This document shows positions 28,365-37,598 of a stretch of 64,000 nucleotides of DNA, in pieces. The notes beneath the pieces are model-generated. The model was given only the letters and a program-made list of their open reading frames with translations, was not told the DNA's origin and made no database searches. This DNA is from Lachnospiraceae bacterium. GTDB taxonomy: Bacteria; Bacillota; Clostridia; Lachnospirales; Lachnospiraceae. The position numbers and the translations under genes were made by a program. Every line of letters starts with the position of its first letter. The first letter of the stretch is position 1. Location of the stretch: the NCBI GenBank assembly GCA_022510565.1, contig JAFLTE010000001.1, positions 62,001 through 126,000 on the forward strand, read 5' to 3'.

Positions 28365-29363
28365 TTAATCCGCTATCTGCCGTCCTTCGTGGTCCAGATG
28401 ATAGTTATTCCGATAAATCAGCTCTGAAATCGGCACCAGTTCATATCCTTTATCCTGAAGCGTTGTAATTAAGGTATCCAACGCATCCGCGGTGTACTTG
28501 GCGCCGTTATGACAGAGAATAATACTGCCGTTTCCGAGATGCTTGTGCTCCGTCACCGTCTTGATGATGGAATCTACACCGTAGTCTTTCCAGTCGAGAG
28601 AGTCCACATCCCACTGTATGGAAAAGTATCCGCAATCCTTCGCCACTTTTATGACATTGTTGTCATAATCTCCGTAGGGCGGCCTGAACAGGAACATTTC
28701 ATACCCTGTCAGTTCCTGTACCTTAGTATGTACATCCATCAACTCCGTCCGCTTCTCCTCATCGGACAACTGACTCATATTTTTATGGTTCTCACTGTGA
28801 TTGCCGAGGTCGTGTCCGTCCGCCAGAATCCTTTTAACATCATCCGGATAAGACTCTACCCAGCCTCCCGTCATAAAAAAAGTTGCCTTTACATTATGTT
28901 TTTTCAGAATATCCAAGATTGTCTGCGTGTCTTCATTTCCCCATGCCGCGTCGAAGCTCAGCGCGACCTTATTCTCGTTGGTCTGCACACAGTAGATAGG
29001 AAGTTCACGCCCATTCACCGTATTACTGACCGTAATTGAATCCGGCAGTATTCTGGTCATGCCTTGTATTAACGCGATAGTCGCCAAAGCAAACGCTGCA
29101 GATTGTACCACCTGCAAAAGGACAGCCTGCATAAAACCTTTTCTTTTATGCTCCTCTTTCGTTATGCCGTCCGAATGTACGCTTCCACCGCAATACTGTC
29201 CGTAACGTCGTTGCTGCTGACGCTCCGCTGTCCACGCTTCAACCTGCTCCGGTGCCGGCCAGACTTCACCGGTGCGCCCCGCAGAATCCCTTTGCACTTT
29301 TCCTTCCAGTTCATGCAAAGCAAGCTTAATCTTATCGTTCCAACGCATTCCGTATTTACTCAT
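28365..29363 (-). CDS. Polysaccharide deacetylase, membrane-anchored, PdaB-like
   Basis: 332 residues. A cytoplasmic ~90-residue stretch (RWNDKIKLALHELEGKVQ) precedes one membrane segment (LQVVQSAAFALATIALIQGM). The extracellular NodB domain has motif 1 VALSFDAAWGNEDT, motif 2 HDLGNHSENH, motif 3 RPPYGDYDNNV, and ILCHNGA. The FDAAWG form is like spore-peptidoglycan deacetylases of the PdaB group. I chose the ATG at 29363; two upstream in-frame ATGs (29378, 29408) exist. Its upstream region contains a large inverted repeat and the left 51-bp repeat of the galactan islet, so it was probably next to the membrane gene at 37110 before the insertion. Confidence 0.85.
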   Translation of the reverse strand: MSKYGMRWNDKIKLALHELEGKVQRDSAGRTGEVWPAPEQVEAWTAERQQQRRYGQYCGGSVHSDGITKEEHKRKGFMQAVLLQVVQSAAFALATIALIQGMTRILPDSITVSNTVNGRELPIYCVQTNENKVALSFDAAWGNEDTQTILDILKKHNVKATFFMTGGWVESYPDDVKRILADGHDLGNHSENHKNMSQLSDEEKRTELMDVHTKVQELTGYEMFLFRPPYGDYDNNVIKVAKDCGYFSIQWDVDSLDWKDYGVDSIIKTVTEHKHLGNGSIILCHNGAKYTADALDTLITTLQDKGYELVPISELIYRNNYHLDHEGRQIAD

Positions 29364-29370
29364 AATAATA

Positions 29371-29405
29371 CCCTGCATATAATTGTTATTAAAGTATATG
29401 CAGGG
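29371..29405. repeat. Inverted repeat over the deacetylase ribosome binding site
   Basis: CCCTGCATATA (29371-29381) and TATATGCAGGG (29395-29405) are perfect 11-base arms around a 13-base loop, extendable with G-U pairs. The inner end of the 51-bp direct repeat (29401) falls inside one arm. The arm nearer the gene holds the GCAGGGT ribosome-binding region, so the RNA hairpin could hinder translation. Confidence 0.65.
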
Positions 29406-29451
29406 CATCTTCTTATTTACGATTATTTTTGATTATCTTTCTTCATGCGCT
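29401..29451. repeat. Left copy of 51-bp direct repeat
   Basis: Identical base for base to 37088-37138. It starts CAGGGCATCTTC and ends CTTCATGCGCT. The minus strand of 29423-29451 repeats the last codons (MKKDNQK and stop) of the membrane gene at 37110, but no coding sequence precedes it here: an orphan 3' end. Confidence 0.9.
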
Positions 29452-29464
29452 TAATATATTCCAC

Positions 29465-31123
29465 TCAGTCAACCTTTCTCAGAATAGCCATATCCAAATT
29501 ACACCAATCACCTGCGTCTGCAACTGTATATACACCGATTTCCAATGTATTATTCGTTACAACAATCTCGTCAATCGAATAAATATTCCAATTTATATCG
29601 CTGGTAGTAATTGTTGTGTTAAGTTCACTTCCTCCATAATTTTTTGCGTATAACTGTAGTACATTTTGGTCTCCATTAGTCATTGCCCATACGGAGAATT
29701 GGTATGTGCCGTTTGGTAAATTCGTAAATGTTTTGTAAACAGAGCAGCTATATGCTTCATCGTCCCAAAACGTGAGTTTATAATTTCCATCATAGGCATT
29801 ACCATATTCGGTTTTTATAGTTTCATCACTTGTCGAATCACTGCGCCATACATTCCAACCGGAGGGCGTGGTCGTAATTCCATCGGCTTCAAAGCTTATA
29901 TTGCTAAGCAAGTTCTGCGTCGGCTGATTCAACACTTTGATTGAATCAAGTGCATTACCGTTAAAATCAAACAGTGTCATATTATCCCACGTGTTACTCG
30001 GAGTAACAGTATCATTTTTGTAGGCAACTCCTGCGTCGGATGCATATGTGCCACCTTCAACGGGCAGCCATTCCGGTTCCCAATAAAAGAATCCTATCCC
30101 TTTATCATTCGGAACATTGAGAAGTATTGACTCCAAATCATTCATAAATTCAAATTGACCATCGGTGGTTGCCGGATATCCAGCTATGTCCTCATCCCCG
30201 CTGATAAATACATTGCCCACACCATCTCCGTCTTCTGTCGTCCATGCATATGCCGTTTCAACAATGCAAACCTCTTTATTATAGGTTGAGGCCAGATAAT
30301 TCAAATTATATTGCAGGCCTTCCATAGTCCCATGCCACATAGGATAATAAGAAAGTCCAAAAACATCAAAGTCAAGGTTTGGTGATGTTTTCAGCAAGTT
30401 TCCAAAAAACCAAGTATATAATGAATTTTGTCCCCCTTGGTCCAAATGAAGAATAATCTTGGCATTCGAGGCCGCAGAATCTCTTACACCCGAAATAGCT
30501 GACTCTAAAAGTCCCGCAAGATTTGAAAAATCTTCAATTCCATCCCCTACTTTACCGTCATCGTGAAGAATACCGGTTGAAATCTCATTCCCTACTTGAA
30601 CCATGTCAGGAACTATTCCCGCTGAAGCAAAATCATTTAAGGTTGTCTTCATATAATTATATAGTGTTGTCTTAAGTTCAGAATATGTAAGATTTTCCCA
30701 ATCTTTTGGCTTAATTTGATTTGCCGGATCTGCCCAGAAATCACTTAAATGAAAATCAATAAGGATTCCCATTCCAAGATTCTTAGCTCTCTGTGCCAGT
30801 GCCAGAGTGGTAGCATAATCGTTATTTCCGCCTCCATATGCATTCCCATCTTTATCATATGGGTTTACCCATAATTTTAAACGAACATAATTTGCTCCAT
30901 TGTTGCGTAAGATTGTAAGCGCATCACTCTCCGATCCGTTTTGATAGTATTTTGCCCCTAAATCCTCTAGCATATCAAGTGTTGAGACATCCACACCTCT
31001 GATAAAATTCGAGGTGTCAACCGCTCCGGTATTTGTATATGCATGTGCTGACATACCGGTAAATAGTTGCGTCATCGCAAGTGCCACTGCAATTGTAGTT
31101 TTAATGAATTTACTTTTTTTCAT
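29465..31123 (-). CDS. ganB: Secreted GH53 endo-beta-1,4-galactanase with C-terminal CBM
   Basis: 552 residues. It cleaves beta-1,4-galactan, a pectin side chain. Signal peptide residues 1-28 (ends SAHA). The GH53 (beta/alpha)8 domain (~38-395) has FIRGVDVSTLDMLE, YVRLKLWVNPYD, the acid/base Glu in VQVGNE (E180), LSYYPMWHG and the nucleophile Glu in VCIVET (E289), and FYWEPEWLP. Residues ~409-552 are a CBM61-like galactan-binding domain (NISFEADG, SGWNVWRSD, NLPNGTYQFSVWAM). No membrane anchor, so it is secreted or loosely attached. Last gene of the islet operon. Confidence 0.93.
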   Translation of the reverse strand: MKKSKFIKTTIAVALAMTQLFTGMSAHAYTNTGAVDTSNFIRGVDVSTLDMLEDLGAKYYQNGSESDALTILRNNGANYVRLKLWVNPYDKDGNAYGGGNNDYATTLALAQRAKNLGMGILIDFHLSDFWADPANQIKPKDWENLTYSELKTTLYNYMKTTLNDFASAGIVPDMVQVGNEISTGILHDDGKVGDGIEDFSNLAGLLESAISGVRDSAASNAKIILHLDQGGQNSLYTWFFGNLLKTSPNLDFDVFGLSYYPMWHGTMEGLQYNLNYLASTYNKEVCIVETAYAWTTEDGDGVGNVFISGDEDIAGYPATTDGQFEFMNDLESILLNVPNDKGIGFFYWEPEWLPVEGGTYASDAGVAYKNDTVTPSNTWDNMTLFDFNGNALDSIKVLNQPTQNLLSNISFEADGITTTPSGWNVWRSDSTSDETIKTEYGNAYDGNYKLTFWDDEAYSCSVYKTFTNLPNGTYQFSVWAMTNGDQNVLQLYAKNYGGSELNTTITTSDINWNIYSIDEIVVTNNTLEIGVYTVADAGDWCNLDMAILRKVD

Positions 31124-31165
31124 ACCTTCTCCTTTCGTTTACCATGATTAATTTTATCTGGAAAG

Positions 31166-32011
31166 TTAGCCTTTTACGCCTCCGGCTACCAACCCATTCT
31201 GAATAAATCGCTGCAACCCCATAAACACTACCATAATCGGTAAGGATGAGATAACCGCTGCTGCCGAGAACATCGTCCAGTGTGCAGCAAACTGGTCACT
31301 GATAAATGACTGTAATCCTAATGCCAGAGTCATTTTGCCCGGCGTCTGTAAAAATATGGAAGTAATTACATATTCACTGTACGTTGCTATAAATGAAAAC
31401 AAAAACAGCACCGCCAGCTGAGGCATCGCCAATGGCATGACAATCTTATAAAACACCTGAAACTGATTTGCTCCGTCCACCAGTGCCGCCTCATCAAGTT
31501 CTATAGGTATCCCGTCAATATATGACTTTAAAAGCCATATATTGAATGCGCTTCCTCCAGCCAGCACAAAAATAAGTGCTATACTGCTGTCAACAAGCCC
31601 AAAGTTGTATATCAAGATGTAATAACCGGCCACTGCCATGCTGTTAGGAAAAACCTGAAGCACCAAAAGCGACATTAATCCATATTTCCTGCCTGTAAAG
31701 CGAAGTCTTGCAAACGCGTATGCCGCCAGAGAAGTCAATGCTAACTGAATTATTGCAACAATCAGGCACAACTTTAATGAATTGAACACCCATTTGGTAA
31801 AATTTGTTTCCCGAAACAATTTAACATAATGTTCCGTGCTCAACTTATTCGGAAACAGGGATGACAAAAAGAAACTATCTCCCGCCGAAAATGATGACAT
31901 GACAATCCACAAGGCCGGAAAGATTACTAAAACCATAGTGATCCATATGACCACACGGCTGATCCACAAGCTCCTTAAATCCGAAGGAGACATTTTTTCT
32001 TTATATTTCAT
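31166..32011 (-). CDS. ganQ: Galactooligosaccharide ABC permease, MalG-like
   Basis: 281 residues, six membrane helices. The EAA loop reads IPIELDEAALVDGANQFQVFYKIVMPLAMPQ, characteristic of CUT1 sugar permeases; VIFPALWIVMSSFS and YILIYNFGLVDS are also typical. It pairs with the MalF-like permease three bases upstream. By analogy with gan operons it imports galactan oligomers released by the extracellular GH53. No ATPase gene is in the islet; a shared MsmX-type ATPase elsewhere is expected. Confidence 0.88.
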   Translation of the reverse strand: MKYKEKMSPSDLRSLWISRVVIWITMVLVIFPALWIVMSSFSAGDSFFLSSLFPNKLSTEHYVKLFRETNFTKWVFNSLKLCLIVAIIQLALTSLAAYAFARLRFTGRKYGLMSLLVLQVFPNSMAVAGYYILIYNFGLVDSSIALIFVLAGGSAFNIWLLKSYIDGIPIELDEAALVDGANQFQVFYKIVMPLAMPQLAVLFLFSFIATYSEYVITSIFLQTPGKMTLALGLQSFISDQFAAHWTMFSAAAVISSLPIMVVFMGLQRFIQNGLVAGGVKG

Positions 32012-32013
32012 TT

Positions 32014-32925
32014 TTAGTCCACCTCCTTAAATGATCCGGATAAATGCATGTTGACCAGTGTAAATGTACCAACAATAAGAAATATTAGTACGCTAAACGT
32101 TGCCGAAAGCTCATATCTGTTTGACCACGTCGTCATCTTATATGTAGTACTTGCAAGTATATCCGTATATCCTGCAAACTGGTTATCCACTCTTGCAGGA
32201 CCACCTTGCGTAATCATATAGATATTTCCAAAATTATTAAAATTAGAAGCAAAAGTTGAGATTACTAACGGTACGGAAAGCCTTGTAACCATGGGCAGCG
32301 TGATACTTTTAAAACATTGAAACTTTGATGCACCGTCTATCCTCGCCGCCTCATAATAATCATTGGAAATCGCCTGCAGCCCTCCAAGACAAACATTCAT
32401 CATATAAGGGAAACCGAGCCATACATTGACAATTATAATTCCCGCACGTGCCCAAAACGGGTCTGTAAGCCATGGCACATTCCACATGATTCCTATAGTA
32501 TGAAGTAAATTGTTGATTCCACCATACTGTTCGTTTAACAATCCTTGCCATGCGAGAATTGCTATCGTAGACGGCAGTGCCCAAGGAACAATCAATACAG
32601 CTCTGTATATTTTCGACTCTTTCATATGCGGATTATTCAACAAAATCGCCAGAATAAGTCCTGTAGCATACGAACCCGCTGTACTTAAGATTGCGAAGCA
32701 TACCGTCCAGCCAAGCACCGGAAAGAAAACATTTTTGATACTTCCCGAAAAAACTGTAAGATAATTCTCCAATCCCACAAAAGAAAAATCGCTTAAGTGA
32801 TACATATTATAATTGGTAAACGAAATGACAACCGTATATACAATCGGCAGGCACGTCACAACAAAGATTGACACTAACGCCGGCAGTAGGTATGGATATG
32901 CTCCTGCATTATTCCTTTTTTTCAT
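32014..32925 (-). CDS. ganP: Galactooligosaccharide ABC permease, MalF-like
   Basis: 303 residues, six membrane helices (YLLPALVSIFVVTCLPIVYTVVISF first). The EAA loop is ISNDYYEAARIDGASKFQCFKSITLPMVT. Length and pattern match GanP/MalF permeases without the large MalF periplasmic loop. It starts seven bases after the substrate-binding protein stop and three bases before the MalG-like gene, so all are in one transcript. Confidence 0.88.
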   Translation of the reverse strand: MKKRNNAGAYPYLLPALVSIFVVTCLPIVYTVVISFTNYNMYHLSDFSFVGLENYLTVFSGSIKNVFFPVLGWTVCFAILSTAGSYATGLILAILLNNPHMKESKIYRAVLIVPWALPSTIAILAWQGLLNEQYGGINNLLHTIGIMWNVPWLTDPFWARAGIIIVNVWLGFPYMMNVCLGGLQAISNDYYEAARIDGASKFQCFKSITLPMVTRLSVPLVISTFASNFNNFGNIYMITQGGPARVDNQFAGYTDILASTTYKMTTWSNRYELSATFSVLIFLIVGTFTLVNMHLSGSFKEVD

Positions 32926-32932
32926 AATATCA

Positions 32933-34135
32933 CTACTTTCCTGAATTCATTAATTCAACAGCTTCCATCAGTTGGTTTACTATATTTTCTGCAGTTTCCT
33001 GCGGCGTAAGCTCTCCCATCCACATGGAACGGATATTATTCGTATGTATCGCCCAAAGCTGTCCCATTTCCGAAACGGTAGGCATCGGTTCACCATTATT
33101 GATTTGGGCTATAAATGCCTTTGAGTATTCATTACCCTGTATCTGCTCGTCTTGCTGATCAGATAATTTTGCCGGAATCCTGTCACCTGACTCATACATT
33201 CCCATAGCCCCGTTATCAATCAGATACATAATAAAGTCCCATGCCTTATCCTGACTGTCGCTCTTATTGCTTACAAAGCTTATCTGCGTTCCTACCGGTG
33301 TAACAAACGGCTGACCGTTAAATGTCGGCATCTCTACGATAGCAAACGGCGTCCCGGCGGACGTAAATCCATCAATATCCCACGGGCCACCAATGTAGTA
33401 TGCAGTCTGCCCATTCTGGAAATTACTCCTCGCTATATCAGCCGTAACATCCGCCGAAAGCAATTGATATTCATTACACAAATCGTTAATAAATTCATAT
33501 GCCTGTACGGCCCCGCCATTAGCTAAACCAATATTTTTCACATCATATGCTCCATTTTCGTATTTAAAAATGTATCCCCCACATGCTCTTACAAATCCAA
33601 GGTCATAATAAATACTTGTGGCATCAAACTGTACACCACCGCCTTCTGTGGCTTGTTCAACAAGCTCCTCCCATGTATCCGGCACTTCGGATATCATATC
33701 TGTATTGTAGAACAGCGCCGTTGTCTCAACGGAAAGCGGGGCAGCATACCTAATACCGTTTACGTAGCATGCCTGTATGGCGGCATCGGAAAAGTCTTTG
33801 TTATTGTAAAGTTCATCAGGAACTTCTGCTGCCAATCCTGCATTGATATAATCAGCAAGCTGGTCGTTCGGTATTCCCACCACCGCATCCGGTCCATCTG
33901 CGCTGTTGATTGCCTGAGCAAATTGTTGCACAGACGGCGACTGATGAATCACCTGAACCTCAAATCCGTTTGCCTCTCCCCACTCATCGGCATACTTCTG
34001 AATCGTTTCCGCTTCTACATCCATGTTAGTCCATATGGTGAGCTTATTGTCCGGACCTTTGGACGCTCCGCACCCTGAAAGAGTTGAGGCAACCAGCACA
34101 CATACCATAGATACAACTGTTATTTTCTTTTTCAT
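32933..34135 (-). CDS. ganS: Galactooligosaccharide ABC substrate-binding lipoprotein
   Basis: 400-residue CUT1 solute-binding protein with a lipobox (LVASTLSGCGA, Cys about residue 22). The mature domain has KLTIWTNMDVEAETIQKYADEW, DAVVGIPNDQLADYINAGL, RYAAPLSVETTALFYNTDMI and FQNGQTAYYIGGPWDI, the maltose-binding-protein-like pattern. It would deliver galactooligosaccharides to the adjacent permeases; specificity is inferred only from the two flanking GH53 genes. Confidence 0.88.
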   Translation of the reverse strand: MKKKITVVSMVCVLVASTLSGCGASKGPDNKLTIWTNMDVEAETIQKYADEWGEANGFEVQVIHQSPSVQQFAQAINSADGPDAVVGIPNDQLADYINAGLAAEVPDELYNNKDFSDAAIQACYVNGIRYAAPLSVETTALFYNTDMISEVPDTWEELVEQATEGGGVQFDATSIYYDLGFVRACGGYIFKYENGAYDVKNIGLANGGAVQAYEFINDLCNEYQLLSADVTADIARSNFQNGQTAYYIGGPWDIDGFTSAGTPFAIVEMPTFNGQPFVTPVGTQISFVSNKSDSQDKAWDFIMYLIDNGAMGMYESGDRIPAKLSDQQDEQIQGNEYSKAFIAQINNGEPMPTVSEMGQLWAIHTNNIRSMWMGELTPQETAENIVNQLMEAVELMNSGK

Positions 34136-34147
34136 TGAGTGCCCTCC

Positions 34148-35221
34148 CTACATCATTTTTAGATTCAACAAAGCTCTGTTAGCATTTCCTTTAGAATCAA
34201 ATAACGCCTGATTCGCCATTGAATTCCCTGCCTCTACCTTATCTTGCATATAATCACAACCGTTTTGGTTAGCCCACTTGCAATCGGGAATCGGAAGCCA
34301 TGCAGGCTCCCAGTAAAAAACGCCAATACCCCTGTTATTGTTTACGCTTCTGACTGTGGCAAACAGATCTTTCAAAAACCTCTCTTGGCCCTCCATTGTT
34401 GCCGGATAACCGGTGGCTTTTTCCTGTTCCTCCAAAAAAACAATCCCTGTGCATCCCAGCGTATCTGTTGTGTATCCAATTGATGTTTCGGCAACGATTA
34501 TATCCTTATCATATCTGCTGCTCACATCATTCATATTATCAAGAAGAAGCTGCAGACTGCCATTCCAATGTGGATAATATGACATTCCAATCACATCATA
34601 ATCAATATCAAATGGCTGTATTTTATCAAACCACTGCCTGTATTGTTCATTATTCGTTCCAAAATCAAGATGGAGCACGATTTTTGCTTTAGGACATTGT
34701 TCCCTCGCACCTCTGACTCCTGCTTTTAAAAGCATGACCATTGTTTCTGTATTATCAATATGTCCGTCCGGCCAGAGCAATCCTTTCGTAATTTCGTTTC
34801 CAATCTGTATCATTTCCGGAATTAACCCTACATTTTTCAGAGCTTTCAGAGTATTGACTGTATGTAAATATACTGCCGTTTCAAGATTCTCACCTTCGAG
34901 ATTCTCCCATGTTTTAGGTTTCATCTGCTTTGCAGGATCAGCCCAAAAATCACTGTAATGAAAATCCAACATATATGACATCTCGCTGCTCAGAGTACGT
35001 TTTGCAAGTTCAATTGTTGTTTGCAGATCATTCATACCACCGCCATACGGCTTCCCATATTCATCATATGGATCCTGCCATATCCTGAGCCTAATCATAT
35101 TCGTACCACATTTTTGCAAAATGTGAAACAAGTCTTTCTTTTGACCATCCATATAATATGATGCACCATGAGCCTCAAGCTCTTTAATCATAGATACATC
35201 CATTCCTTTGACAAACTGCAT
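34148..35221 (-). CDS. Cytoplasmic GH53 beta-1,4-galactanase
   Basis: 357 residues and no signal peptide: the ATG at 35221 begins directly with the first beta-strand (FVKGMDVSMIKELEAHG). Catalytic residues are in IQIGNE (E143) and IIVAET (E245); FYWEPAWLPIPD and SYYPHWNG also match GH53. It lacks the C-terminal binding domain of the secreted paralogue at 29465, and the two catalytic domains are clearly similar, indicating gene duplication or paired inheritance. A role in trimming imported galactooligosaccharides is inferred. It starts three bases after the lipoprotein gene. Confidence 0.9.
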   Translation of the reverse strand: MQFVKGMDVSMIKELEAHGASYYMDGQKKDLFHILQKCGTNMIRLRIWQDPYDEYGKPYGGGMNDLQTTIELAKRTLSSEMSYMLDFHYSDFWADPAKQMKPKTWENLEGENLETAVYLHTVNTLKALKNVGLIPEMIQIGNEITKGLLWPDGHIDNTETMVMLLKAGVRGAREQCPKAKIVLHLDFGTNNEQYRQWFDKIQPFDIDYDVIGMSYYPHWNGSLQLLLDNMNDVSSRYDKDIIVAETSIGYTTDTLGCTGIVFLEEQEKATGYPATMEGQERFLKDLFATVRSVNNNRGIGVFYWEPAWLPIPDCKWANQNGCDYMQDKVEAGNSMANQALFDSKGNANRALLNLKMM

Positions 35222-35224
35222 CTA

Positions 35225-35776
35225 TTACTCCTTAACCAATGTAATATCATCAATTGTTCCCCATCCGCCGGGAGCGGTCGTAACGCTGACACCAATGGTA
35301 ATCTCTCCGTCCGTTACATTAAGCCCCGCAAGTTCTGCCGTATACCAGTTTACATATCCATTAAGCGAAGCGTCTACCGTAACAGTATTTCCACCTATAA
35401 TCGCATAAAAGTAAACTGACGCATTTTCATCTCCGGCTGCCTCACCTTGTATATGCCCCGTCAGTTTGTAAGAACCTGTCTCCAATCCTGAAATTGTCTG
35501 TTCCGCAGTAAAATTAACATCATTGGATCCCGAATAGAAATGAAGAGACTGCACACCCGCATAGCAATCTGTATCGCGCGTGTAAATATCAAGTTCTTCC
35601 GTAACATTATCAATATTGGTAACATTCCAGCCTGTGAAATCAGCTTCCTCAAAGCTTCCGTTTACCACGTAATTACCGTTTTCATCTGCCTGAGCCTTTG
35701 CCCCTGAGTTTCCGCATCCTGCAAGCACAACAATCATGCCTGTGAAAAGTAATGCCAAACATACTTTTTTGTTCAT
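35225..35776 (-). CDS. Surface lipoprotein with CBM61-like galactan-binding domain
   Basis: 183 residues. Lipobox MIVVLAGCGN (Cys about residue 21), then essentially a single carbohydrate-binding module: YVVNGSFEEADFTGWNVTN, LHFYSGSNDVNFTAEQTI, LETGSYKLTGHIQGEA and GGWGTIDDITLVKE. The module resembles the C-terminal domain of the secreted GH53 at 29465 (same NxSFE start and terminal DMAILRKVD-like strand). It has no enzyme domain, so a surface capture role is inferred. First gene of the operon. AAAGGAG precedes the ATG at 35776. Confidence 0.8.
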   Translation of the reverse strand: MNKKVCLALLFTGMIVVLAGCGNSGAKAQADENGNYVVNGSFEEADFTGWNVTNIDNVTEELDIYTRDTDCYAGVQSLHFYSGSNDVNFTAEQTISGLETGSYKLTGHIQGEAAGDENASVYFYAIIGGNTVTVDASLNGYVNWYTAELAGLNVTDGEITIGVSVTTAPGGWGTIDDITLVKE

Positions 35777-35902
35777 GATATCAATCTCCTTTACATAAAT
35801 AATATAGTTAGTGCTAATTGATGGAACACCACACATTTATTTTGTGCGTAATAAATAAATAAATAAATTATTATTATATAAATAAATTATTTACTTATAA
35901 TT

Positions 35903-35931
35903 ACAATAACACTTTACTTTTTATCTGTCAA
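35903..35931 (-). promoter_or_regulatory. Candidate promoter of the galactan operon
   Basis: TTGACA (35926-35931), 17-base spacer, TATTGT (35903-35908) on the minus strand, then a leader of about 120 very AT-rich bases (repeated AAATAAAT-type units). Confidence 0.6.
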
Positions 35932-35965
35932 CAAACAATAGATAATTTGACTAAATACACAATTT

Positions 35966-35980
35966 TATAAGCGCTTTTTA
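35966..35980. promoter_or_regulatory. cre-like / LacI-type operator candidate
   Basis: The palindrome AAGCGCTT (35969-35976) with AT-rich flanks resembles CcpA catabolite-response elements and other LacI-family operators with a central CG. It lies about 40 bases upstream of the -35 of the galactan promoter. Confidence 0.4.
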
Positions 35981-35997
35981 AGACAAATGGCACAAAA

Positions 35998-36022
35998 TAA
36001 AAAAGAACCCGAAGGTTCTTTT
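35998..36022 (-). terminator. Intrinsic terminator of the lacI-type gene
   Basis: Minus strand AAAAGAACC, TTCG tetraloop, GGTTCTTT and a T-rich tract (TTTTTTATTTTG). It separates the regulator from the operon, so the operon depends on its own promoter. Confidence 0.8.
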
Positions 36023-36032
36023 GAAGTTTCTT

Positions 36033-37016
36033 TTAACAACTTTTACGGAATATGGGAATTCCGTTTACAAAGATGACTTTTGTGACTTTTCCACCGTTCA
36101 GCGCCCGGTTTCTCAATAAATCCAGCGCCGACTCACAGATGATTGGTATATCAATATGGAATGTTGTTAACGGGGGCGATACATACTGTGCCACATTGAC
36201 ATCATTAATGCTGAACACCGCAATTCGCTCCGGTATCTGCACGCCCGCCTCATTCAATGCTTGCAGAACTCCGACCGCAAGGGTATCGTTTGCGACGCAG
36301 AGCGCCGTCGGCATATCTTTCCGCGTTGCCAGTTCTTTTCCCGCTCTATATCCCTCCGCCACCGAATACTTCTGTGTAATATATATGTCATCCTCGCATA
36401 GGCAGCCATAATACGCCGCGCTCTGGCGAAAGGACCATTCCCGTATATCCATGGATGGCTGCTCTGTATCCACATTCTTGTCCGTCCCGCCGACGAAACC
36501 TATCTTCTTATGTCCTTTCTCCACAAAATAGTCTACCATCTGCGTAACAAAGGAATCTAAATTAGGGCGCACCGCGTCAAAAAGTTTTTCATTCGGAGAT
36601 GTGTCGATAAACACACCGTTCTCGCATTTTCCGTACAATTGTTCCAACTCTTTCCGATTCATCCACCCTAATGCAACAAACGCATTTAAATCTGAAGGAA
36701 CCGCCTCTATTCCTTCTTCTTTTGTAATTACGCTTAAATGAATATTTACTTTCTTAGCCTGACTCAGCAATTCATCATAAATCGCCCGGTAATAAATATC
36801 TTCCAGCTCTTCTCCCGGCGATATCCAAAACAAAAACGCTGCATTTTCGATTTTAGGGTATATTATCTTTTTCTTATATCCTATTTTTTCTGCCGTCGCA
36901 AAAATTGCTTCCCGCGTTTCCTGACTGACGGATATTCCCTCATCATAATTCAATACTCTTGATACCGCTGCGCTCGAAACGCCCACAATCTCTGCTATTT
37001 CTTTTACCGTTGCCAT
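36033..37016 (-). CDS. LacI-family regulator of the galactan genes
   Basis: 327 residues. The N-terminal helix-turn-helix (MATVKEIAEIVGVSSAAVSRVLN) is followed by the hinge and a periplasmic-binding-like effector domain (VDYFVEKGHKKIGFVGG, PTALCVANDTLAVGVLQALNEAGVQIPERIAVFSINDVNVAQYVSPPLTT). Its place inside the 51-bp repeats with the galactan genes makes it their likely repressor, responding to a galactooligosaccharide or galactose. An 18-base AT palindrome overlaps its own -10 (37037-37054). GGAGTTGGAGG precedes the ATG. Confidence 0.9.
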   Translation of the reverse strand: MATVKEIAEIVGVSSAAVSRVLNYDEGISVSQETREAIFATAEKIGYKKKIIYPKIENAAFLFWISPGEELEDIYYRAIYDELLSQAKKVNIHLSVITKEEGIEAVPSDLNAFVALGWMNRKELEQLYGKCENGVFIDTSPNEKLFDAVRPNLDSFVTQMVDYFVEKGHKKIGFVGGTDKNVDTEQPSMDIREWSFRQSAAYYGCLCEDDIYITQKYSVAEGYRAGKELATRKDMPTALCVANDTLAVGVLQALNEAGVQIPERIAVFSINDVNVAQYVSPPLTTFHIDIPIICESALDLLRNRALNGGKVTKVIFVNGIPIFRKSC

Positions 37017-37036
37017 ACATGACCTCCAACTCCATT

Positions 37037-37066
37037 AATATTTACATAAATATTTTACTATGTCAA
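37037..37066 (-). promoter_or_regulatory. Promoter of the lacI-type gene with overlapping palindrome
   Basis: TTGACA (37061-37066) and a TAAATA -10 (37039-37044, spacer 16). The perfect palindrome AATATTTA-N2-TAAATATT (37037-37054) covers the -10 and could be an autoregulatory operator; it lacks the central CG usual in LacI sites. Confidence 0.45.
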
Positions 37067-37087
37067 ATGGATTTGAAAACGTATTGT

Positions 37088-37138
37088 CAGGGCATCTTCT
37101 TATTTACGATTATTTTTGATTATCTTTCTTCATGCGCT
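37088..37138. repeat. Right copy of 51-bp direct repeat
   Basis: Identical to 29401-29451. It spans the last 29 bases of the membrane-protein gene, its stop (37110-37112) and 22 bases beyond. The identity ends sharply on both sides. Confidence 0.9.
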
Positions 37139-37598
37139 CCAATTCCGCTTCTATGGCATCGACTCTGGCACTCGTCTGCTGTATTCGTGGATCATCGGAC
37201 CGCTCCGGCTCCGAAAACGTCTTCCTGTTTGCAAAGAGGATGCGAGCCAATAGACCGGCGCCGCCGAAGATAAGCACTAAAATCAGCACCCACTCATACA
37301 AGGTAAGGCGCGTCAACCTGACAGTTGTCGTCATGATGATTGCCAAGACTATAATCAACACACCGGCTGCGGTAAACATTTTGGAAGGAAAACTGCCCTC
37401 CGATGCAAACATCCATACAACTCCGATGATAAAAGGCACCATAATCAGCCCATTACTCATGTTAAATCCGCCAATTCTGAAACCATATCCCCAAAGCGAC
37501 GAGTACACTATGACTTTCTGAGAAAAAATAAACAATCCTGCTATGAGCATTGCCAAGCCCGCTAAAAACTGCAAAAGTTCGTTTCTTGCCTTCTTCAT
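37110..37598 (-). CDS. Hypothetical four-helix membrane protein with coiled-coil tail
   Basis: 162 residues with four membrane segments (LLQFLAGLAMLIAGLFIF, GLIMVPFIIGVVWMFA, MFTAAGVLIIVLAIIMTTTV, YEWVLILVLIFGGAGLL) and a charged C-terminal helix (VDAIEAELERMKKD). I do not recognise a named family. Its last seven codons and stop are the part duplicated as the left 51-bp repeat at 29401, so this gene was probably the neighbour of the deacetylase at 28365 before the galactan islet entered. Confidence 0.75.
   Translation of the reverse strand: MKKARNELLQFLAGLAMLIAGLFIFSQKVIVYSSLWGYGFRIGGFNMSNGLIMVPFIIGVVWMFASEGSFPSKMFTAAGVLIIVLAIIMTTTVRLTRLTLYEWVLILVLIFGGAGLLARILFANRKTFSEPERSDDPRIQQTSARVDAIEAELERMKKDNQK

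What the first reader, a model, noticed from the sequence alone, without database searches (positions are those of the whole stretch)
29401..37138. Galactan operon sits exactly between identical 51-bp direct repeats
29401-29451 and 37088-37138 are identical over 51 bases and diverge at once on each side. The right copy is the 3' end of a membrane-protein gene plus 22 bases; the left is an orphan copy just before the deacetylase. Between them lies only a complete galactan-utilisation set and its LacI regulator. This is the pattern expected for an inserted islet that restored the target gene's 3' end, but no recombinase is inside. It appears to have split a membrane protein-deacetylase pair.
Basis: partly seen in the sequence, partly recalled or inferred. 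Interest (0 to 1): 0.8.

Follow-up and report, generated by a model that had tools for sequence, protein, structure and literature searches.

The report
Inserted galactan operon between short repeats
A gut bacterium carries a set of genes for eating plant galactan slotted between two neighbouring genes, with a 51-letter copy of the neighbour's end on each side; most relatives checked have the empty slot, and how the set got in without a mobility gene is still inferred.

Summary
In detail: 29401-29451 and 37088-37138 are identical over 51 bases. In 464 kb of this genome no other exact direct repeat of 27+ bases at 0.3-30 kb spacing exists. The islet lies between a membrane-protein gene and a pdaB-like deacetylase gene, adjacent in 24 of 25 congener stretches where both were found. 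The window's joined flanks align with 10 congeners' empty sites. So it is an insertion, and the repeat is host sequence. The same seven genes sit elsewhere in G077. A 99%-identical islet contig in MAG HAN048 ends where an occupied/empty assembly bubble would (inference). No recombinase was recognised in the islet. I favour insertion by illegitimate recombination that duplicated 51 bases; site-specific integration in trans is not excluded. New member of a known kind (repeat-flanked variable segment).

More striking, in passing: the neighbouring deacetylase gene is in pieces or ends early in 33 of 77 genomes of the genus (hand-sorted), with a serine recombinase within 2 kb of a break in 16 of 22 examined.

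The parts
29401..29451 (-). R2, left copy of the 51-base direct repeat, directly upstream of CATATACT in the deacetylase leader
37088..37138 (-). R1, right copy: last 29 bases of the membrane-protein gene plus 22 bases
29452..37087 (-). inserted DNA between the repeats, lower G+C (0.408) than the flanks (0.442, 0.455)
36033..37016 (-). LacI-family regulator
35225..35836 (-). 203-aa protein without a Pfam or NCBIfam family, probable lipoprotein (by eye)
34148..35221 (-). GH53 galactanase, 357 aa, no signal peptide by eye
32933..34135 (-). solute-binding protein of an ABC transporter (MalE/GanS-like, below NCBIfam cut-offs)
32014..32925 (-). ABC permease (MalF-like)
31166..32011 (-). ABC permease (MalG-like)
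29465..31123 (-). GH53 galactanase, 552 aa, with N-terminal signal-like stretch (by eye)
37110..37598 (-). membrane-protein gene whose 3' end is duplicated; no Pfam family
28365..29408 (-). PdaB-like polysaccharide deacetylase, intact here; by comparison of leaders the start is probably 29363
29371..29405 (-). inverted repeat with 11-base arms over the deacetylase CATATACT element; R2 ends inside its left arm

Best explanation
The islet is a laterally acquired galactan operon, from promoter to last stop codon, inserted between the membrane-protein stop codon and the CATATACT element of the deacetylase leader. Shown: insertion at a site that is empty in most congeners checked; duplication of 51 host bases; no recombinase recognised in the islet; the same seven-gene block at another locus in another species. 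Inferred: the joins were made by illegitimate recombination (a template switch, or one-sided homologous recombination with incoming DNA) at or beside the inverted repeat over the deacetylase leader; resuming 51 bases upstream of the departure point makes the repeat. The duplication was kept because R1 preserves the membrane-protein 3' end and R2 preserves the sequence upstream of the deacetylase -10 element. Later spread between strains would be by ordinary recombination. Function from the families: LacI-controlled import and cleavage of beta-1,4-galactan.
For: Joined window flanks align collinearly with 10 congener junctions; G106, whose deacetylase is the best match among the 76 other genomes (85%), is empty with a like leader. 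Genes adjacent in 24 of 25 stretches. All seven genes, the 552-aa galactanase at 80% identity, lie at another locus in G077; the core operon lies behind a tex-like gene (named by eye) in G013, G073, G078 and G098 and elsewhere in G106, while this genome's tex-like locus has no operon. Core operon to G106 73.7% in DNA against 84.1% and 81.4% for two flanking genes; to G013 75.9% against 86.0% and 83.6%. Homology to G077 stops at the last stop codon and just upstream of the lacI promoter: a trimmed block, not an element with ends. The same slot in G028 holds an unrelated 10.6 kb sugar block without a long repeat and with no recombinase in the 8 of 10 called ORFs tested.
Against: In PMC2884548 (passages) 66-94% of repeats flanking variable segments are under 30 bases, so 51 is in the tail. 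Junction microhomology could not be tested because the donor is unknown. In PMC11317153 (passages) template switching was not observed among gut transfers, although only five insertions there were assigned a mechanism. In HAN048 the sequence changes from 99% identity to a diverged left copy at the islet edge while R2 equals this window's R, which a site-specific unit carrying its own R would also give. Core operon to HAN046 81.5% is close to its flank identities (82.0% over 666 bases, 79.3% over 450), so a foreign history is not visible against that genome.
Confidence: 0.5

Rival explanations
1. Site-specific integration of a circle by an integrase supplied in trans or since lost; R is the attachment sequence, and the islet carries one copy (like islands that replace the 3' end of a protein gene).
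For: R1 restores a gene 3' end. In HAN048 the left copy is diverged and the right copy equals R, as expected if islet plus R is the unit. Sharp edges on both sides.
Against: No recombinase recognised in the islet. R at no other occupied site (2 of 77 genomes). No inverted repeat of 6 bases or more inside R. HAN003 carries the islet without the 552-aa galactanase and without R2. Of 25 stretches with both genes, none has a recognised integrase element between them (24 adjacent, G028 a sugar block).
Confidence: 0.25
2. Campbell-type integration by homologous recombination of a circular DNA that already carried a copy of R next to the operon.
For: Would give exact direct repeats of the shared stretch; 51 identical bases.
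Against: Needs an earlier joining of R to the operon; 51 bases is short for efficient homologous recombination (recall). No plasmid or viral record with the islet was found: one 3% match in plasmids, no relative of the 357-aa galactanase in viral contigs.
Confidence: 0.12
3. The islet is ancestral at this locus and was deleted between the repeats in other species.
For: HAN048 and HAN003 contigs carry the islet at a like deacetylase leader. Deletion between direct repeats is a known route (PMC2884548, passages).
Against: 24 of 25 congener stretches lack it; congener operons sit at other loci; no leftover islet was seen in the ten aligned junctions.
Confidence: 0.06
4. Assembly artefact of a mixed metagenome.
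For: All key genomes are metagenome bins; the HAN048 and HAN003 islet contigs sit in bins whose other tested genes are 71-79% identical to the window and may be misbinned.
Against: Both islet edges recur independently in HAN048, with a different left flank.
Confidence: 0.05

Closest known systems
Repeat-flanked variable segments of bacterial species (PMC2884548; passages seen)
   Same: Presence/absence block at a fixed locus, direct repeats at its base, no mobility gene recognised
   Different: The repeat is 51 bases (most there are under 30) and keeps both neighbours' ends
Prophages and islands that replace the 3' end of a protein gene (e14/phage 21 in icd; recalled, from no call)
   Same: Direct repeat made of the target gene's 3' end, gene left whole
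   Different: Those carry an integrase; none recognised here, and the block is only an operon
Galactan (gan) operons of Bacillus (recalled)
   Same: GH53 galactanase, solute-binding protein and two permeases in one operon
   Different: Two GH53 genes and a LacI regulator, no beta-galactosidase in the block; the GanS model scored 163.9 bits against a cut-off of 700
Sporulation gene-intervening elements: skin, SPbeta in spsM, vfbin, gin, yin (PMC5595907, PMC10747680; passages seen)
   Same: For the neighbouring deacetylase gene in congeners: large serine recombinases at breaks inside the gene
   Different: Not the window's islet, which lies outside the reading frame and has no recombinase; excision not tested

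Membership tests
Integrase-bearing genomic island | Recombinase gene within the element | tested here: not met
   None among the 7 islet proteins in Pfam and NCBIfam; one of the seven has no family, and smaller ORFs were not scanned
Integrase-bearing genomic island | Direct repeats at the ends with the target gene's 3' end restored | tested here: met
Integrase-bearing genomic island | Same attachment sequence used by other inserts | tested here: not met
   R with up to 3 mismatches in 2 of 77 genomes, both with this islet
Integrase-bearing genomic island | Excised circle | not testable with these tools
   No reads; the ends of the HAN048 contig do not suggest an abundant circle (inference)
Repeat-flanked variable segment | Locus empty in relatives | tested here: met
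   24 of 25 stretches with both genes; alignments; between species only
Repeat-flanked variable segment | Direct repeats at the base of the segment | tested here: met
Repeat-flanked variable segment | Variable between strains of one species | tested here: inconclusive
   Only suggested by the ends of the HAN048 contig; word length of that assembly not confirmed
Transposon or IS element | Transposase gene | tested here: not met
   None among the 7 islet proteins
Transposon or IS element | Terminal inverted repeats | not tested
   -
Sporulation gene-intervening element (congeners' deacetylase gene, not the islet) | Serine recombinase at the interruption | tested here: met
   Within 2 kb of a break in 16 of 22 affected genomes examined; 11 of 11 recombinases tested have Resolvase and Recombinase domains
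Sporulation gene-intervening element (congeners' deacetylase gene, not the islet) | The interrupted gene belongs to sporulation | tested here: inconclusive
   PdaB model 222.7 bits against a cut-off of 237.4; SpoIVA in 71 of 77 genomes; leader motif reads as sigma-E/K-like by recall
Sporulation gene-intervening element (congeners' deacetylase gene, not the islet) | Precise excision during sporulation | not testable with these tools
   Needs culture; short shared cores at the breaks resolved in 2 of 15 pairs

The most novel reading that the evidence does not exclude
The islet plus one R copy is a catabolic cassette without its own recombinase that still moves between species at a fixed slot and is now polymorphic (occupied and empty alleles together in the HAN048 gut population). 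The slot adjoins a pdaB-like deacetylase gene that is a genus-wide target of skin-like serine-recombinase elements at four main positions, so the locus is a recombination hotspot tied to sporulation.
Probability: 0.2. Interest if true: 0.65.

Novelty: new member of a known kind. Interest (0 to 1): 0.4.

Why it matters
It is a capture of a fibre-degradation operon in an uncultured gut Lachnospiraceae lineage whose empty site is known in congeners, so the way gut bacteria gain sugar operons without recognisable mobility genes becomes testable at one defined junction. The neighbouring gene may matter more: a pdaB-like deacetylase with a conserved, sporulation-type leader is in pieces or ends early in 33 of 77 genomes, at four main positions, with at least three kinds of serine recombinase nearby. 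The passages seen in PMC10747680 name sigK, spsM, spoVFB, gerE and yabG as interrupted sporulation genes; 'deacetylase' occurs 0 times in that paper and in PMC5595907. My two searches on this point were made, in an open-licence library only.

Tried and rejected
Phage or plasmid carriage: 3 stretches matched a peptide pattern of the 357-aa galactanase in viral contigs and none encodes a relative; a 23-base part of R has no exact match in viral contigs; plasmids gave one match covering 3% (a permease).

A direct repeat around the G028 insert: only 16-base matches, one pairing the membrane-protein gene with the deacetylase gene, judged chance. Inverted repeats inside R: none of 6 bases or more. 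Short shared cores at the deacetylase breaks: 15 pairs compared, a plausible 10-base core only in G027 and G032; the other 13 gave 6-8 base matches no better than chance.

Independent check of the word length of the HAN048 assembly: 42 contig ends compared, one overlapping pair, by 52 bases and not 55. The bubble reading of the islet contig therefore stays an inference.

Transfer or misbinning: the islet contigs of HAN048 and HAN003 are 99.0% and 98.5% identical to the core operon here, but other genes of those bins are 71-79%. HAN048's own membrane protein-deacetylase pair is on another contig, without the islet, with the deacetylase broken near codon 271. I cannot tell recent transfer from misbinning.

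Statistics: the Fisher value for the HAN048 left flank used a mismatch count set by hand (9) and is not used. For HAN003, 4 of 54 flank bases against 67 of 4337 islet bases differ, p 0.011.

Paper searches without a specific hit.

In this version I corrected the description of G106 as nearest congener, the position of R2 relative to CATATACT, the operon threshold, the list of genomes with extra deacetylase pieces, and the number of G028 ORFs tested.

Full report
Observation. The two 51-base copies are exact and end at once on both sides; they are the only exact direct repeat of 20 bases or more in the window. In seven segments of this genome, 464 kb in all (window included), the only other exact direct repeat of 24 or more at 0.3-30 kb spacing is one of 26 bases; 20 order-2 Markov shuffles of the window gave longest repeats of 14-19. 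The repeat is real and exceptional in the part of the genome scanned.

Anatomy. All seven islet genes are on the minus strand: LacI regulator, a 203-aa protein without a family, GH53, solute-binding protein, two permeases, GH53. Islet G+C is 0.408 against 0.442 and 0.455 beside it. R1 is the last 29 bases of the membrane-protein gene plus 22 more. R2 ends directly before CATATACT; with the last base of R this reads GCATATACT, which stands at the deacetylase leader in 19 of 23 congener loci searched and 10 of 15 (misses include loci without the gene's 5' end). I read it as a sporulation-sigma-type -10 element, by recall. The last five bases of R are the start of an inverted repeat with 11-base arms over that element. 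So R1 keeps the membrane-protein gene whole and R2 keeps the sequence upstream of the -10 element in place.

Empty site. The window's flanks joined across one copy of R are collinear with the membrane protein-deacetylase junction of 10 congeners. G106, the best deacetylase match of the other 76 genomes (85%), is empty too, as are G104 and G020. Of 59 congener stretches examined, 25 hold both genes; the matches lie 19-203 bases apart in 24 and 10.6 kb apart in G028. In the other 34 stretches one or both genes were not found, so the tally speaks for those 25 only. In G028 the slot holds a different sugar block: GH43/esterase, PTS parts, glucosamine-6-phosphate isomerase, an amidohydrolase and a nucleotidyltransferase; 8 of 10 called ORFs were tested and none is a recombinase.

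Origin. The 203-aa marker protein at 69% identity or more occurs in 12 of 77 genomes, this one included; the next best is 46% or less. The core operon sits behind a tex-like gene in G013, G073, G078 and G098; in G106 it follows prfB-like and other genes; in G077 all seven genes, with the second galactanase at 80%, lie beside a carbamoyltransferase-like gene (gene names by eye). This genome's own tex-like locus has no operon. Core-operon DNA identity to G106 is 73.7%, below two flanking genes (84.1, 81.4%); to G013 75.9% against 86.0 and 83.6%. To HAN046 it is 81.5%, near its flank values (82.0% over 666 bases, 79.3% over 450), which does not support a separate history. Against G077 homology ends at the last stop codon and just upstream of the lacI promoter.

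Near-identical copies. MAG HAN048 holds a 7775-base contig with the whole islet (72 substitutions and 8 gap columns in 7636), R2 identical and the left copy diverged: 3 differences in 42 bases, 13 more unaligned. HAN003 holds a scaffold (98.7% over 3123 and 97.9% over 1214 bases, with a 100-N gap) without the second galactanase and without R2; its second permease runs straight into the deacetylase leader. Other genes of these two bins are 71-79% identical to the window: recent transfer, or contigs put in the wrong bin.

A possible empty allele in HAN048. The contig starts exactly 55 bases before the islet. Its last 55-mer starts right after the last base at which the two copies differ (14 bases of R2, 41 of leader). 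A graph assembly with word length 55 of a sample holding occupied and empty alleles would break exactly there, and an abundant circle would break it elsewhere. The word length is not confirmed: the one overlapping contig pair found shares 52 bases. I take this as suggestive.

Mechanism. Shown: insertion, duplication of 51 host bases, no recombinase recognised, block found elsewhere. Inferred: template switch or one-sided homologous recombination near the leader inverted repeat, with selection for whole neighbours. Site-specific integration in trans fits the HAN048 pattern equally well and is the main rival. Known background: 10-18% of variable segments in the species groups of PMC2884548 are flanked by direct repeats, 66-94% of them under 30 bases (passages). 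PMC11317153 reports microhomology at gut transfer breakpoints, with end joining dominant and template switching not observed (passages), which counts against the exact route I favour.

The gene next door. Breaks fall near codons 152-161 (14 genomes), 165-192 (9), 196-200 (3) and 270-304 (7). Several breaks coincide with contig ends, so an insert is inferred there and not seen. Of 22 affected genomes whose stretches I examined, 16 have a large serine recombinase within 2 kb of a break; in G001 and G077 one lies about 6.6-6.7 kb away, in G016, G023, G078 and G099 none was seen. All 11 recombinases tested have Resolvase and Recombinase domains, and cross-identities of 22-26% between groups point to at least three kinds. 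G009, G024, G025, G036, G082 and G106 have a whole gene and one or more extra 3' pieces downstream; G010 has extra 3' pieces beside a broken gene. In G009 an Abi_2 gene stands between the two copies, which share a 304-base exact stretch; in G023 an Abi_2 gene stands beside the 3' piece. SpoIVA is present in 71 of 77 genomes. This looks like sporulation gene-intervening elements at a new gene; excision was not testable.

Noticed in passing
window 28365-29408 (intact here); congener loci L084, L085, L086, L087, L088, L089, L091, L138, L146, L150, L160, L200: The PdaB-like deacetylase gene is in pieces or ends early in 33 of 77 genomes of the genus at four main positions, with large serine recombinases within 2 kb of a break in 16 of 22 examined: a candidate new target of sporulation gene-intervening elements.
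   Followed up: partly
L093:3734-14159: G028 carries an unrelated sugar block (GH43/esterase, PTS, glucosamine-6-phosphate isomerase, amidohydrolase) plus a nucleotidyltransferase gene in the same membrane protein-deacetylase slot, without a long direct repeat.
   Followed up: partly
L095:3660-6561: G009 has a whole deacetylase gene, then an Abi_2 gene, then a second deacetylase 3' piece from about codon 198 with a 304-base exact match: another block flanked by a duplicated gene 3' end.
   Followed up: partly
L084:10893-11996 and L085:5360-6463: The elements in G010 and G012 carry a Rep-like protein (PF02407 Viral_Rep, 24.7 bits, cut-off 26; G010 copy tested) near the serine recombinase.
   Followed up: no
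L241 end (HAN048 C29) and L138 start (HAN048 C79): Two HAN048 contigs overlap by 52 bases near the end of the element that breaks its deacetylase gene; an alternative join (circle or variant) is possible but unexplained.
   Followed up: partly
window 29371-29405: Inverted repeat with 11-base arms over the deacetylase CATATACT element, with similar sequences in many congener leaders; possible terminator or regulator site.
   Followed up: no
G000 C1 38012 and 39611 (locus L207): A 26-base exact direct repeat 1.6 kb apart, the only other one of 24 or more found in the 464 kb scan.
   Followed up: no
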